Source: Pseudomonas capeferrum (lineage in GTDB: Bacteria; Pseudomonadota; Gammaproteobacteria; Pseudomonadales; Pseudomonadaceae). From it: a stretch of 64,000 bases of DNA. The position numbers and the translations under genes were made by a program. Shown here in pieces: positions 7,637 through 12,924 of the stretch; the first letter of the stretch is position 1; every line of letters begins with the position of its first letter. Location: NCBI RefSeq assembly GCF_000731675.1, contig NZ_JMIT01000001.1, positions 991,526 through 1,055,525 of the forward strand. Direction: 5' to 3'. The notes under the pieces are model-generated. The model saw only the letters and a program-made list of their open reading frames with translations. It was not told where the DNA came from and searched no databases.

Positions 7637-7698
7637 TTAACCAGCTTGGTAAGTTGCAGAACTTTCGGTTTAGTGCTTTCGTCAAGTAATTGACCCAT

Positions 7699-7776: not shown

Positions 7777-8367
7777 ATGGACGCACAAGCAGCGGTCGAC
7801 GGCATTCGTTCCCTCGGCGAGAAGCGAGTGGTGACCTTTCTGGGTTTTTCCGACGCGGGCTATGAGGATGAAGCTCGAGCCCAGGAGGTGTTGCTGGCAG
7901 AGCTCGCGACCTTCGACCCTCGGGATACCATCGTGTGCTCGGGTGCCACTGCGCAAGGCATTGGCATGGTCTATCCACTGGCACTGCGTAAAGGGTTTCG
8001 CACCGTAGGTATCGTCTCTTCGCGGGCGCGCGCCGAGGGGGTGCTGTTTTCCAAGGATTGCGAGCGTGTGTTCGTGGTGGACGACCCTACCTGGGGTGGC
8101 ATGCAGCCCAATGAATATCTGTCCTCCACCTCACAGGCCATGGTCGATGCCAGTGACGTGATGATCGCCATCGGCGGCGGCGCGATCGCCCGCGACGAAC
8201 TCGTAGCAGGCCACAGCAAAGGCAAACTCGTCCGTTTTCATCCTGCAGACATGAATCATGCTCGCGCCATGGCGAATGCCATCAAAGAAGGCGGGCCGGC
8301 CCCACGGTCGTTCTGCGGCGCCGCCCAGGCGCTCTTCCAGTGCACAGGTGGGGAGGAAGGAGCATGA
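7777..8367 (+). CDS. SLOG-superfamily (LOG-like Rossmann fold) protein
   Basis: A 196-residue protein with a single alternating alpha/beta domain. It starts with VVTFLGFSDAG, continues with IVCSGATAQGIGMVYPLAL and FRTVGIVSSRA, and ends with DVMIAIGGGAIARDELVAG. The last segment occupies the place of the PGGxGTxxE motif of LOG/lysine-decarboxylase-like enzymes but is changed to GGGxxxxDE. SLOG domains bind or process nucleotides and occur in prokaryotic immune systems beside TIR and TPR-S proteins, for example as the ligand sensor of ThsA in Thoeris. The ATG at 7777 has CAGGAGA 8 bp upstream. Its stop overlaps the start of the next gene (ATGA), so the two are translationally coupled. Whether it senses or makes a nucleotide signal cannot be decided from sequence. 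Confidence 0.75.
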   Translation: MDAQAAVDGIRSLGEKRVVTFLGFSDAGYEDEARAQEVLLAELATFDPRDTIVCSGATAQGIGMVYPLALRKGFRTVGIVSSRARAEGVLFSKDCERVFVVDDPTWGGMQPNEYLSSTSQAMVDASDVMIAIGGGAIARDELVAGHSKGKLVRFHPADMNHARAMANAIKEGGPAPRSFCGAAQALFQCTGGEEGA

Positions 8368-9356
8368 GGAAATATGCGGTCGTCTTTGTGCATGGGCTGG
8401 CAAAGAAGCCTTCGCCTGAAAAGCTTGAGGAAATCTGGCGTTGGGGGCTGGAGCGAGCGGACACGCCTGCACCTTTTCATGGCCAAAACCCAGGGATCGA
8501 CCTCGACACCCAGGGCGTGCCAGGCCTGTTCAACTACTATGCGGATGTATTCTACGGCACCGATTACGAAACAGATCTCGATGCGTTTTATGAGTCCAGG
8601 GACGGTTCTGTCGTTGACCTGGGGAGCCTGCACCAGATAGCAGGCGAGCTTGCCATCCCGACGCCTGCCAATGAAAAAGAAGCAAGGTTCCTTGCTGAGG
8701 TGGAGCGCAAGATGCGCGAGGTGCCTTTCCCACCCGAGCCGCCGTGCCTTGTGGCCCATCCAGCTGCACAGCAACCTACACAATTGGAGATCGCTTCGTG
8801 GCTGCCGGGGCCCGTGAAGGAGGCCATCATCAAAAAAGCGGCGATGGAAGCGTATTACTTCCTGTTCAACAAGGACTATGCGCGGCCAGCCGATGGCGCG
8901 ATCTTCAAGGTGCGTGACGAGCTGCGCCAGCGCCTGATCGACGACTTGAGAAAAGCGGCGGAGCAGGCCAACAAGCTGGTGCTGGTAACTCATAGCATGG
9001 GCACGATGATCGCCTACGACGTTCTGCGCAACTGCAAGCAATGCCCTCCGGTGGAGGTGCTGTTCACCCTTGGATCGCCGCTGGGCATCACCGAAGTGCA
9101 GGAGCAACTGCGGGCCGATGGGCTGCAACACGTCGATTTCCCACCTGGGCTCGGTCGATGGATCAACGTCTACGACCCCCTCGACCCCATCTGTGGTGCT
9201 GACCCGAGAATGGACGATTTTCGCCCCACGCAGGGGCGTAGGGTGGAGGATGTTAGAGAGAGCAACTGGGGAAACTGGCGCCATACAGTCACCCACTATT
9301 TCGCCGGCAGGCAGTTCCGCTCATTGCTGATGCATACCCTCGGGATATCACGCTGA
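8364..9356 (+). CDS. Alpha/beta-hydrolase (lipase/esterase-like), second gene of SLOG-TIR operon
   Basis: A 330-residue soluble protein without a signal peptide. An early oxyanion-type motif (AVVFVHGLA, residues 5-13) and a nucleophile elbow THSMGT with Ser211 are clear. Candidate acid and histidine residues lie in NVYDPLDPICG and NWRHTVTHYF near the C-terminus, in the right order for a Ser-Asp-His triad. The middle segment (about residues 55-180) has no family signature that I recognise and could form a lid or partner surface. GGAGGAAGGAG at 8352-8362 precedes the ATG, which overlaps the SLOG stop codon. In conflict systems such hydrolases can act as membrane-lipid or acyl-ester effectors; that role is inferred from context only. 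Confidence 0.78.
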   Translation: MRKYAVVFVHGLAKKPSPEKLEEIWRWGLERADTPAPFHGQNPGIDLDTQGVPGLFNYYADVFYGTDYETDLDAFYESRDGSVVDLGSLHQIAGELAIPTPANEKEARFLAEVERKMREVPFPPEPPCLVAHPAAQQPTQLEIASWLPGPVKEAIIKKAAMEAYYFLFNKDYARPADGAIFKVRDELRQRLIDDLRKAAEQANKLVLVTHSMGTMIAYDVLRNCKQCPPVEVLFTLGSPLGITEVQEQLRADGLQHVDFPPGLGRWINVYDPLDPICGADPRMDDFRPTQGRRVEDVRESNWGNWRHTVTHYFAGRQFRSLLMHTLGISR

Positions 9357-11011
9357 TGTCGCCCATGTCAGCGGGTGAACTCGCCATTGCCCTGAAACGC
9401 GGCGAGTTTCCCAACCCGCCGTTGCAGTTGCTGACGCACGCTGTGCATTTGCTCGCGGACGAGGTGCTCGATGGCAAGCAGGCTTCGCGCAAAAGCGTCC
9501 GCGAGGCCATGGACCTGCTGCGCAGGCACCGCCATTTCGAACATGTGCACGAGCTAGGCGTCGCCTGGCACGATACCTTCGGTTGCGACGCCATGATCCA
9601 GCGCCTGCTCGCCCAGGCGAAGGTGGAGCTTGGCGCACTGGAAGGGGCCGACGATCTGCTCGATGAAGCCGACCAAATGGCGATCAGGCACCCGACAGAC
9701 CTGGAATACCAGGCAGAGGAGAAGGACTACAACGCGTTGCGCGGGCGTATCCGCAAGCAACGGTTTGTGTTGACGGACAATGTGAACGTACTCGCCGAGT
9801 CAATCGCTTACTACCAGAAGAAGCAGCTAGCGCAACCAAGCTTCTTCCTCGACGTGAATGTACTGGCGCTGCGGGTACGCCTGCACGATCGGATAGCACA
9901 GCCGATCCAAGTACTCATCGAGTTGGCCCACGATGTTTTGAAGCAGGCAACCGTCGCTATACGAACCAAGCCTGCCGACCCATGGGCGCTGGCAACTGCG
10001 TCCGAAGCGTGCCTTGCCTTGAGCCGCTTCCTGCCGGACGAGAGCTGGTGCGACTGGGCCGAATTGTGGTTGTACCGGTTCTTGGCGCACCCGAAATGCG
10101 GCCCGTTCGAGATCGAGAGCTATTTTCGCCAGGTGCGCGAAATCTGGAGTGGAGCCCCACTGGACGAATCCACGTGTGCGGGGCGCTTGGCCAGGATCTT
10201 TGAACGGCACATGCTGCGCACTCAGCGCCGTTGGTCCGTGGACGCCCGTCAGTTGCAATGGCTTCAACAAAATCCCGAAGAGCTCGAAAAGAACTTTTGC
10301 GGTGAAAAGTCGTTCACGGTTGCCGACATCCGCAAGATGCTCGCGCTCGCACCTAACATCGGTTGCGTGACGAACGACAAAGGGGTGCGTATGGGCACCG
10401 GTTTCCTGGTGCAGGGTTCAGCTTTCGGCGATGACGGCTTGCTGTTCATCACCAATGCCCATGTGATCAGCGATACCTTGACCAAAGCGATACGCGGCAG
10501 CGATGCACGCGTCACCTTCGAGACGGAGGCAGACGGCAGCATGCCCCCCTGTCTGGTGCAAGCGATCCTGTTCAATTCGGAGCCAGGGCAACTGGGTAAC
10601 GTGAAGGAGGCGCCGGGTAAGCTGGATGTTACCGTCTGCCGCCTGAGCCGCACGCCAAACGGTGCTGCTGGCCTGCCGGTGGCACCGACTGTCCCTTGGC
10701 CCTCACCGCGAACCAAAGCTTTCGTCGTCGGCCACCCGCGAGCCGGCGAACTGCAGTTCTCGCTTCAAGACAGCGTGCTGCTCGACGTCTGCGGCAACGA
10801 GCGGCTGATGCACTACCGCACGCCGACCGACCCGGGTAGTTCCGGCAGCCCGGTGTTCAACAGAGACTGGGAAGTCATAGCGCTGCATCACGCGGGCTCG
10901 CAGACATGCCCGCGTTTGTCAGGCTCAGGCTTCTATGAAGCGAATGAAGGCATCACGCTGCAGGCGATCCGACAGCATTGGAAAGGCATGGCAACTGATT
11001 CGCTTGGATAA
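9356..11011 (+). CDS. TPR-S-like repeat region fused to a trypsin-like serine protease domain
   Basis: A 551-residue protein. Residues 1-310 are alpha-helical, and residues about 205-265 match the hallmark of the TPR-S (DUF4071/TRAFs-binding) family: DPWALATASEACLALSRF, then FEIESYFRQVREIW. Residues about 335-545 are a chymotrypsin-fold protease: GTGFLVQG, His369 in ITNAHVISD, Asp424 in KLDVTVCRLSR, and Ser496 in TDPGSSGSPVF, so the triad is complete. No signal peptide is present, so it should act in the cytoplasm. The ATG overlaps the hydrolase stop by one base (TGATG). A second ATG at 9365 is an alternative start. The TPR-S part is probably the sensor or scaffold and the protease the effector or processing enzyme. 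Confidence 0.8.
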   Translation: MSPMSAGELAIALKRGEFPNPPLQLLTHAVHLLADEVLDGKQASRKSVREAMDLLRRHRHFEHVHELGVAWHDTFGCDAMIQRLLAQAKVELGALEGADDLLDEADQMAIRHPTDLEYQAEEKDYNALRGRIRKQRFVLTDNVNVLAESIAYYQKKQLAQPSFFLDVNVLALRVRLHDRIAQPIQVLIELAHDVLKQATVAIRTKPADPWALATASEACLALSRFLPDESWCDWAELWLYRFLAHPKCGPFEIESYFRQVREIWSGAPLDESTCAGRLARIFERHMLRTQRRWSVDARQLQWLQQNPEELEKNFCGEKSFTVADIRKMLALAPNIGCVTNDKGVRMGTGFLVQGSAFGDDGLLFITNAHVISDTLTKAIRGSDARVTFETEADGSMPPCLVQAILFNSEPGQLGNVKEAPGKLDVTVCRLSRTPNGAAGLPVAPTVPWPSPRTKAFVVGHPRAGELQFSLQDSVLLDVCGNERLMHYRTPTDPGSSGSPVFNRDWEVIALHHAGSQTCPRLSGSGFYEANEGITLQAIRQHWKGMATDSLG

Positions 11012-11112
11012 ACCGCTACGACTAGCGTGTGGGTTATTCAGCTCATGCCGTGCCATGCGTTTACATCAGTCACCCGGTGGACGCTACCCAGGCATTGGGT
11101 AGGGAGGCTTAG

Positions 11113-12696
11113 ATGGCATCGATCTTCATCAGCTATCGTCGCAAAGACTATACGGCCGGAGTCAGCACCCTCGAGCAGCACCTGCGCGGTTATTTCGGGC
11201 AAGCGTCAGTTGTGCTCGATCAGGATGGCTTTCTCGGCGGCACGGACTGGCAAGCGGAGATGAGGGCAGCGGTCATACAAAGCAGTGTGGTTATTTGCGC
11301 AGTGGGTGATAGCTGGAGCGAACCGTCGTTGCGCAAAAGCGGCCCGGACCACCTGCATGAAGAACTCAATATTGCCCGTAGTCTTGGCAAGCCCATTATT
11401 CCCGTAGTGGTTGGCAGCGGCGCGGGGAAATCAGCCCTGACCCAGCTACCCGCAGCCATTGCCTGGCTCACAAAACTGCATGCGGTCGACTGCACAGGGC
11501 CTGAGCTGGGGCGAATCAAGGCGCTCGAACGTGCCATCGGCAGCAATGTCCTGGCCGCTACAGGGGCAGGAGGGGCGTCGATCGGGGCGATGGTTGCCGA
11601 TCTTTTCTACAGCCTCCTGTACCCAGTGAGTGCAGGGGGCATTGCATTACGAGGTACGGCATCAGGCATGACATCGGCTTTGCTTGGGGTCAGCTTCTCG
11701 GCAGTTGGCCTGCTGATGCTGTCCATGGTGCTGAGGGAGGACTTCGATGCACTGGCGCCTTTGGGTAAAATCCTCGGAGTGGTTGTCATCTTTGTTGGCC
11801 TGGTATACGGGCTTGCATCGTTGATTACCCGCTTTGGGCCTGCCAGGGCCCACCCTCGTGGGCGATTTACATACGCGTTGAGATTCTGTGCAGCCATCAT
11901 CACGTGCGGGGTCCTTTACTTCACAGTATGGGTCAGCTTTTTGCCGGATGGCTTCTTCACGCAAATGATGAACGCGCTGGAGGAGGGCGGTGCAGCGGAA
12001 TTGAAGACAGCAGAGGAGATCAACAACTTTCCTCCTCATTTGATGGTTGTGATGGGCGTGTTCAATCTTGGCTTGATCTTCCATCTGCTCTATATCACTT
12101 GGGGCTTTGTTCGCAGCATTGCGGCGGTGGTGAGAACAGGCCGGCTGCCTGCATTCCTGTTGTTCGTATCGTTGATAATGGCAATAGGCATCATGGGCTG
12201 GATCAGTTACTCGATGAGCGCCGAAACGCCTGCGCCGAGCAAGAAACCGGTTCGGATAGCGGGTCAAATGCCACGCGAGTTTTCATTTTCGAATGGTTCC
12301 GACAAGCTGACCGTAGCGGGCACCGAGTTGATGCCCATGAAAATCCGAGCCAGCGGAAACATGCGGTTCGAGAACAATATCGTGATTCTGGACTTCAAAG
12401 AGTTGGTGGTCGAAAACCGCACCGACGCATCAGTCATCGTGGACCGTATTCACTTTACGCTGGGACGGCGTGTGGACGGAAAGTTCTCATGGACTGATCC
12501 CGTCCCCTTCAGTAACGAGGTCGCGTTCGGCGCGATTGATGGGCATGGCGAGCGTCGCCTTGAGGACTTTACCCTGCGAGCACGACTGCATCCCACAATG
12601 AAGCCTGGAGAAACCGTGCTGACAGTCTGGGTGACTATTAACGGTAAAGCCGAGCAACCGATTGGCGATGGTAGTGACGCGATCTTGCGTTGGTGA
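11113..12696 (+). CDS. TIR-domain membrane protein
   Basis: A 527-residue protein in three parts. Residues 1-145 form a TIR domain: SIFISYRRKD at the start, VVLDQDGFLGGTDW, CAVGDSW, and DHLHEELNIARSLGKPIIPVVV. Glu84 sits where NAD-cleaving TIR domains carry the catalytic glutamate. About five hydrophobic helices follow (roughly 185-208, 216-238, 257-279, 310-333 and 345-368). The last 155 residues are polar and beta-rich (SFSNGSDKLTVAGTEL onwards) and would lie in the periplasm if the TIR domain is cytoplasmic. AGGGAGG at 11101-11107 gives an excellent start. It follows the protease gene after 101 bp on the same strand. The layout suggests a sensor outside the membrane controlling a TIR NADase or signalling domain inside. 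Confidence 0.85.
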   Translation: MASIFISYRRKDYTAGVSTLEQHLRGYFGQASVVLDQDGFLGGTDWQAEMRAAVIQSSVVICAVGDSWSEPSLRKSGPDHLHEELNIARSLGKPIIPVVVGSGAGKSALTQLPAAIAWLTKLHAVDCTGPELGRIKALERAIGSNVLAATGAGGASIGAMVADLFYSLLYPVSAGGIALRGTASGMTSALLGVSFSAVGLLMLSMVLREDFDALAPLGKILGVVVIFVGLVYGLASLITRFGPARAHPRGRFTYALRFCAAIITCGVLYFTVWVSFLPDGFFTQMMNALEEGGAAELKTAEEINNFPPHLMVVMGVFNLGLIFHLLYITWGFVRSIAAVVRTGRLPAFLLFVSLIMAIGIMGWISYSMSAETPAPSKKPVRIAGQMPREFSFSNGSDKLTVAGTELMPMKIRASGNMRFENNIVILDFKELVVENRTDASVIVDRIHFTLGRRVDGKFSWTDPVPFSNEVAFGAIDGHGERRLEDFTLRARLHPTMKPGETVLTVWVTINGKAEQPIGDGSDAILRW

Positions 12697-12792: not shown

Positions 12793-12924
12793 TTGTAGGA
12801 GCGGCCTTGCCGGGGCGCCGGACCGGTCGGAAAGGGGCGCGCAGCGGCCCCAGATTGGTGCGTCACCGCTGATAGTGCCGGGGCTGCTTTGCAGCCCTTT
12901 TGCGACGCAAGGCCGCTCCTACAA
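12793..12924. repeat. REP pair (inverted repetitive extragenic palindromes)
   Basis: TTGTAGGAGCGGCCTTG at 12793-12809 is repeated as its exact reverse complement at 12908-12924. A stem GGGCTGC/GCAGCCC (12881-12897) lies between them. The GTAGGAGCGG core is the familiar P. putida-group REP sequence, here in a head-to-head pair. It fills the gap between the convergent TIR and NYN genes. The rest of 12697-12999 holds no gene that I can support. Confidence 0.85.

What the first reader, a model, noticed from the sequence alone, without database searches (positions are those of the whole stretch)
7777..12696. Four-gene SLOG / hydrolase / TPR-S-protease / TIR-membrane operon: candidate undescribed conflict system
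Seen: four tightly packed same-strand genes (ATGA and TGATG overlaps, then a 101-bp gap) encode a SLOG-fold protein, a Ser-hydrolase with a THSMG elbow, a TPR-S-like/trypsin fusion with a complete His369-Asp424-Ser496 triad, and a TIR domain joined to five membrane helices and a periplasmic domain. Known: SLOG, TIR, TPR-S and trypsin domains recur in prokaryotic immunity (Thoeris, TPR-S-centred networks described by the Aravind group). Inference: SLOG would handle a nucleotide signal, TIR would make or destroy nucleotides, and hydrolase and protease would be effectors. I know of no named system with exactly this set.
Basis: partly seen in the sequence, partly recalled or inferred. Interest (0 to 1): 0.85.

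Follow-up and report, generated by a model that had tools for sequence, protein, structure and literature searches.

The report
Protease-gated phospholipase suicide switch in bacteria
A Pseudomonas operon pairs an enzyme predicted to be phospholipase-like with a trypsin-like protease joined to a predicted nucleotide-signal sensor, next to a TIR gene and a predicted SLOG gene that would make or read that signal; it likely works as a two-step self-destruct alarm against viruses, and would be a lipid-cutting counterpart of the recently described nuclease-protease pairs of bacterial immunity.

Summary
In detail: four same-strand genes at 7777-12696 with the stated overlaps, catalytic residues and domains. 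Two assignments weak by sequence were tested by fold: gene 1 is a LOG/TRPM-type SLOG, gene 2 an alpha/beta hydrolase nearest to Nir2-DDHD, lysosomal phospholipase A2 and LCAT. The four-gene set is not conserved: the TIR-membrane protein was found in 1 of 298 Pseudomonas genomes, the query's own. What recurs is a pair, hydrolase then TPR-S/trypsin (14 of 18 loci found through the protease; co-divergence rho 0.87). Nucleotide genes join it in changing ways: SLOG alone, TIR genes nearby (12 of 21 records within 10 kb of the protease, 0.49 expected), or a TIR-TPR-S-SLOG fusion in the SLOG slot in Variovorax and Microvirga. Best reading: a NAD-type signal frees the TPR-S-linked protease, which cuts a gate in the hydrolase and so kills the infected cell. 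Proteolytic activation of a neighbouring pro-enzyme is shown for nuclease-protease pairs (PMC12799240); here it is inferred. A new variant of a known kind.

The parts
7777..8367 (+). Gene 1: SLOG-fold protein (196 aa), LOG/TRPM-MHR type by model, with a conserved IGGG-x3-RDE loop
8364..9356 (+). Gene 2: alpha/beta hydrolase (330 aa), phospholipase-like by model; Ser211, Asp271 or Asp274, His307
8574..8783 (+). Variable insertion of gene 2 (residues 71-140); with the low-confidence stretches 61-80 and 121-150 the candidate gate that the protease would cut (inferred)
9356..11011 (+). Gene 3: TPR-S/trypsin-like protease fusion (551 aa)
9581..9871 (+). TPR-S domain of gene 3 (residues 76-172)
   Evidence: PF20308 3.3e-7
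10394..10885 (+). Trypsin_2 domain of gene 3 (residues 347-510); His369, Asp424 and Ser496 codons at 10460, 10625 and 10841
11113..12696 (+). Gene 4: TIR domain (residues 4-128) joined to about five hydrophobic segments and a C-terminal domain; accessory, not conserved with the trio

Best explanation
The operon encodes a hydrolase and a TPR-S/trypsin-like protease that recur elsewhere as an adjacent pair, and it likely works as a two-step abortive-infection switch: the predicted SLOG protein and the TIR protein would make or read a NAD-derived nucleotide signal, the TPR-S domain would bind it and free the fused protease, and the protease would then cut open the hydrolase, which is predicted to be phospholipase-like and gated, so that it would damage the membrane and stop the infected cell. 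Shown here: gene order, domains, invariant catalytic residues, the recurring pair, the repeated linkage to TIR and SLOG, and the triple fusion. Predicted by model: the SLOG fold, the phospholipase-like fold and the poorly ordered stretches in the hydrolase. Inferred: the signal, its binding to TPR-S, the cut in the hydrolase, the lipid substrate and the role against phage. The TIR-membrane gene is taken as a local supplier of the signal at the inner membrane, replaceable by other TIR proteins.
Against: No phage or stress phenotype is known. The TIR-membrane gene was seen with the trio only in the query genome. Among 17 records found through the protease, only 5 have a TIR over the Pfam cut-off within 10 kb; 8 at E 1e-3. 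The window's own close flanks look metabolic (read by eye). TIR clustering may partly reflect defence islands, which the control does not keep. The gate is weakly supported: residues 101-120 of the variable insertion are modelled confidently (95 and 89), while 61-70 and 141-150, of low confidence, are highly conserved, and the alignment had only 24 rows; such loops can be ordinary lids. Most SLOG relatives were seen without the pair (56 of 65). Co-divergence also follows species history.
Confidence: 0.5

Rival explanations
1. Parallel effectors: protease and hydrolase are each switched on by the signal and act on separate targets, with no cleavage of one by the other.
For: Each has a complete invariant triad; a distant hydrolase lies without this protease in the 12.9 kb held of a Sinorhizobium plasmid, beside endonuclease, CHAT and S8 genes, and the protease lies without the hydrolase in 4 of 18 loci.
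Against: Adjacent same-strand order in 14 of 18 loci and co-divergence suggest a partnership, as in nuclease-protease pairs (PMC12799240).
Confidence: 0.22
2. SLOG as damper: gene 1 breaks down or binds the nucleotide signal and keeps the protease off in healthy cells, and the TIR makes the signal.
For: LOG-type SLOGs cleave nucleotides, and SLOG domains of viruses are proposed to destroy cADPR-type signals (PMC9503650, passages); gene 1 keeps a conserved IGGG-x3-RDE loop; most relatives were seen without the pair.
Against: The TIR-TPR-S-SLOG fusion fits a sensor or maker as well.
Confidence: 0.2
3. Housekeeping or stress response: a nucleotide-controlled protease and esterase for envelope repair, unrelated to phage.
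For: Close flanks in the window look metabolic; the hydrolase is lipase-like by model; no PADLOC model covers the set, although the protease part of gene 3 matches two defence-candidate models.
Against: Patchy spread (3 of 298 Pseudomonas genomes; 3 of 398 in the phylum; query counted in both), presence on conjugative plasmids (3 of the 6 plasmids), and neighbours such as TIR, nSTAND1, NACHT and lysozyme in some relatives speak for conflict.
Confidence: 0.13

Closest known systems
Nuclease-protease pairs of Hachiman, AVAST, Lamassu and DRT, and canu (Tuck et al. 2025, PMC12799240)
   Same: [quoted passage not shown] the pair recurs in unlike contexts; the partner may have gating insertions.
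   Different: The partner is an alpha/beta hydrolase, phospholipase-like by model, not an MBL-fold nuclease; the protease is fused to TPR-S, not to HamA, Avs1a or LmuA; activation is not shown here.
TPR-S systems with NAD-derived signals (Burroughs and Aravind 2020, recalled; paper not held)
   Same: TPR-S domain with TIR and SLOG partners and an effector domain.
   Different: I could not check whether that paper lists this hydrolase pair or the TIR-TPR-S-SLOG fusion.
Thoeris (ThsB TIR, ThsA SIR2-SLOG)
   Same: TIR and SLOG joined in one nucleotide pathway (passage in PMC9503650).
   Different: No SIR2 domain among the Pfam matches; the effectors would be a protease and a hydrolase.
Caspase with alpha/beta hydrolase in VMAP ternary systems; NucA-trypsin System 3 (Kaur et al. 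2020, PMC7159879)
   Same: A peptidase regularly next to an alpha/beta hydrolase, or a trypsin with a nuclease proposed to act by a proteolytic cascade (passages; section 32).
   Different: No vWA, MoxR or VMAP gene among the four; trypsin-like, not caspase; SLOG/TIR input through TPR-S. A find for TPR-S in its text gave 0.

Membership tests
TPR-S systems with NAD-derived signals | TPR-S domain in the effector protein | tested here: met
   PF20308 3.3e-7 over cut-off
TPR-S systems with NAD-derived signals | Linked nucleotide-processing domain of the TIR/DrHyd/SLOG class | tested here: met
   SLOG fold in the operon; TIR in gene 4, nearby and in triple fusion in relatives
TPR-S systems with NAD-derived signals | TPR-S binds the nucleotide signal | not testable with these tools
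   needs a binding assay
Nuclease-protease pairs (Tuck et al. 2025) | Trypsin-like protease with complete triad, fused to another module | tested here: met
Nuclease-protease pairs (Tuck et al. 2025) | Partner gene encodes an MBL-fold nuclease | tested here: not met
   gene 2 is an alpha/beta hydrolase
Nuclease-protease pairs (Tuck et al. 2025) | Partner enzyme gated by disordered insertions with conserved cut sites | tested here: inconclusive
   variable insertion with low-confidence ends but a confident middle; cut sites unknown
Thoeris | SIR2-SLOG effector ThsA | tested here: not met
   no SIR2 family among the Pfam hits of the four proteins at E 1
VMAP/vWA-MoxR ternary systems | vWA, MoxR and VMAP components in the operon | tested here: not met
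   none among the Pfam hits of the four proteins at E 1
SLOG superfamily, LOG/LSDAT type | SLOG Rossmann-like fold | tested here: met
   [not shown]
SLOG superfamily, LOG/LSDAT type | LOG phosphoribohydrolase activity | not testable with these tools
   the NCBIfam LOG model scores only 12.4 bits against a cut-off of 300

The most novel reading that the evidence does not exclude
A new class of bacterial immune module: the lipase-protease pair, in which a TPR-S-sensing protease unlocks a pro-phospholipase. It is the lipid-cutting twin of the nuclease-protease pair and plugs into interchangeable makers of NAD signals, ending in a single TIR-TPR-S-SLOG protein that makes and reads its own messenger; in some lineages it also recruits murein hydrolases for lysis from within.
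Probability: 0.38. Interest if true: 0.82.

Novelty: new variant of a known kind. Interest (0 to 1): 0.62.

Why it matters
If right, proteolytic unlocking of a pro-enzyme is a general wiring of bacterial immunity and not a speciality of nucleases, and TIR, SLOG and TPR-S form one signalling axis that ends in membrane attack. It gives a concrete function to TPR-S, a predicted sensor whose ligand, as far as I know, has not been shown, and a two-protein assay that can decide it quickly.

Tried and rejected
Four-gene unit: rejected; the TIR-membrane protein was found in 1 of 298 genomes of the genus, the query's own. SLOG-centred system: rejected; 56 of 65 SLOG loci showed no hydrolase or TPR-S/trypsin relative. 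A clustering of neighbours, with a crude longest-frame choice of genes that often took frames antisense to the SLOG, found no cluster in more than 5 loci apart from the SLOG frames and the pair's own genes. TPR-S (E 1e-4) was present in 24 of 28 and 22 of 24 searched SLOG genomes, one genome being in both (3 of 14 control genomes), which looks like a link, but it could be placed inside a SLOG locus in only 6 of 65.

Phage-borne: pattern scans of the 2.9 million viral contigs gave no relative of the hydrolase, 3 SLOG loci and 5 weak matches to the protease part of gene 3. Empty-site comparison: failed; the downstream flank gene matched 9 of 38 genomes, the query included, and in the five same-genus relatives compared only that gene aligned within the 1.5 kb held on each side, so insertion borders are unknown. 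Sequence search of solved structures gave no relative within E 0.1 for gene 4 or for the profiles of genes 1 and 2, and only two chance-level matches for gene 1 alone, so their folds rest on models or Pfam.

Papers: among the papers listed, none described this gene set in the title, the start of the abstract or the passages that I saw. Kaur et al. 2020 holds the words SLOG, trypsin-like, TIR domain, hydrolase and tetratricopeptide; I saw passages and section 32 of it, not the whole text. Two papers that may well hold this set, Burroughs and Aravind 2020 and Burroughs et al. 2015, are not in the library.

Full report
The observation. Four genes lie on the + strand at 7777-8367, 8364-9356, 9356-11011 and 11113-12696, with a 4-nt ATGA overlap, a 1-nt TGATG overlap and a 101-nt gap, if genes 1 and 2 start at the ATGs seen; their longest frames begin at 7690 and 8340. 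Pfam gives TPR-S and Trypsin_2 for gene 3 and TIR_2 for gene 4 above cut-off, and only sub-threshold matches for gene 1 (LSDAT_prok 0.011) and gene 2 (Abhydrolase_6 and PGAP1, about 2e-4). NCBIfam gives nothing near a cut-off. In PADLOC gene 3 matches PDC-S45 (1.2e-6, best stretch residues 327-377) and RT-Protease_XI (3.7e-6, residues 345-516), both over the protease part; genes 2 and 4 have only marginal matches and gene 1 none. The organism is a Pseudomonas by its close relatives.

What is conserved. The TPR-S/trypsin protein is rare: 3 of 298 Pseudomonas genomes (E 1e-10) and 3 of 398 genomes of the phylum (E 1e-20), the query counted in both; 4 of 299 in the family of Variovorax (E 1e-20), 4 of 269 and 4 of 97 in the orders of Microvirga and Povalibacter (profile, E 1e-35), the centre genome being one of the four in each; and 6 of 72,556 plasmids (E 1e-15). 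To limit bias I count loci found through the protease and not through SLOG, and leave out the window: G232, G241, G404, G449, G836, G739, G960, G1073, G1100, G1148, G1323, G1304, G1357, a second locus of G688, and four plasmids. Two of the six plasmids were dropped as likely copies of K101: M103 has the same matches, and C101 has the same hydrolase match but a shorter protease match under two annotated genes. In 14 of these 18 the hydrolase is directly upstream on the same strand; the exceptions are G449, G739, G1100 and the second G688 locus. The G960 protease match has one internal TGA. Distances of the two proteins over the 22 loci that hold both (8 of them not among the 18) correlate with Spearman rho 0.87. 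The pair is thus the unit. Three of the six plasmids are typed conjugative.

The nucleotide genes. The SLOG scan of genome contigs gave 65 loci. Eight hold hydrolase and protease in the same locus (L004, L005, L006, L007, L015, L041, L047, L063) and one the protease only (L038); 56 showed neither, many of them cut by contig ends. In the tree of 64 rows (two fragments dropped, window added; L038 counted with the pair) the window falls with L004, L005, L006 and L007 in a clade of five (100/96), all with the pair; the label needs 5 changes, 9.5 in shuffles, and at least 4 by the well-supported branches, so SLOG and the pair have come together, or parted, several times. In L006 (Variovorax) and L007 (Microvirga), which branch deeper in that clade, gene 1 is a TIR-TPR-S-SLOG protein of 616 and 619 aa. 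One reading is that the Pseudomonas forms lost the TIR and TPR-S parts and rely on TIR proteins in trans; this is inference.

TIR proximity was tested against each genome's own TIR content. Of 21 records, 12 have a TIR_2 match (E 1e-3) within 10 kb of the protease, against 0.49 expected for random placement, and 9 of 21 within 5 kb against 0.25. The 21 include the window and three genomes that entered through SLOG, two of which count their own fusion protein. Without these four it is 8 of 17, and with only matches over the Pfam cut-off 5 of 17. The control keeps TIR number but not the tendency of defence genes to cluster. In the query genome there are 2 TIR_2 matches in 5.94 Mb, one of them gene 4. 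TIR partners differ in build: TIR with CHASE2 (L041), TIR with an FGE-sulfatase domain directly upstream of the hydrolase (L015), a free TIR of 134 aa about ten bases after the protease (L190), and trypsin-TIR-TPR-S in one protein (L063). Second TPR-S proteins adjoin the pair in L106 and L108 and lie nearby in L041 and L190.

Other recruits. A GH108 murein hydrolase is fused to TPR-S/trypsin in L107 and encoded just upstream of the hydrolase in L074 and of the protease in L038. A lysozyme-CHAP-LysM protein, a TIR gene (25.4 bits, under the Pfam cut-off of 28) and an nSTAND1-WD40 protein follow the pair on the same strand in L184. Patatin and restriction-type genes (annotation) and a NACHT protein (L047) occur near other pairs. 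L072, L076 and L075 showed no TIR or SLOG gene in my local searches. This is mostly the company of conflict systems, although the window's own close flanks look metabolic (by eye).

Mechanism. [quoted passage not shown]). The present pair has the same layout with a phospholipase-like partner and a TPR-S domain in place of the other module. TPR-S was proposed to recognise NAD-derived signals (Burroughs and Aravind 2020, recalled, not read). The SLOG of ThsA senses cADPR-type signals and other SLOGs are predicted to process ADPR derivatives (PMC9503650, passages); alpha/beta hydrolases in related systems were proposed to act on membrane lipids (PMC8195603, passages). I therefore commit to: signal by TIR and/or SLOG, sensing by TPR-S, protease release, cleavage of the hydrolase gate, membrane damage. 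Every arrow is inferred. Relatives of the protease among solved structures include glutamyl endopeptidases, a weak hint of a Glu-type cut; Glu106 in the insertion of gene 2 is invariant, but it lies in the confidently modelled part.

Known or new. None of the papers that I could see describes this gene set (listings and passages), with the caveat that two papers that may hold it are not in the library. I file it as a new variant of a known kind: TPR-S/TIR/SLOG signalling is proposed, proteolytic pairs are known, and the lipase-protease pair with interchangeable signal genes is the new element.

Noticed in passing
L006:8720-10570 and L007:8705-10564: TIR-TPR-S-SLOG triple fusion directly upstream of the hydrolase-protease pair in Variovorax and Microvirga.
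   Followed up: partly
L107:8069-10537: GH108 lysozyme and peptidoglycan-binding domain in one 822-aa frame with TPR-S and trypsin: a possible protease-released cell-wall hydrolase.
   Followed up: no
L184:1461-11197: Run of hydrolase, TPR-S/trypsin, lysozyme-CHAP-LysM, TIR and nSTAND1-WD40 genes on one strand; L185 has frames of like length and order, not scanned against Pfam.
   Followed up: partly
L189:8401-12990: 1529-aa frame with weak TIR, nSTAND1, TPR-S and trypsin domains in Povalibacter, a one-protein version of the same parts.
   Followed up: no
L073:1479-12869: Distant hydrolase without this protease in a Sinorhizobium meliloti plasmid run with DNA/RNA endonuclease, CHAT and S8 peptidase genes, reminiscent of the NucA-trypsin System 3 of Kaur et al. 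2020.
   Followed up: no
P0047, P0068, P0074, P0077 (alignment A1): Several SLOG relatives carry a hydrophobic N-terminal stretch like a signal peptide or anchor, unlike gene 1 (by eye); function unknown.
   Followed up: no
window 12793-12924: Inverted REP-like pair (TTGTAGGAGCGGCCTTGC and its complement) right after the operon, seen by eye; the REP name is recalled.
   Followed up: no
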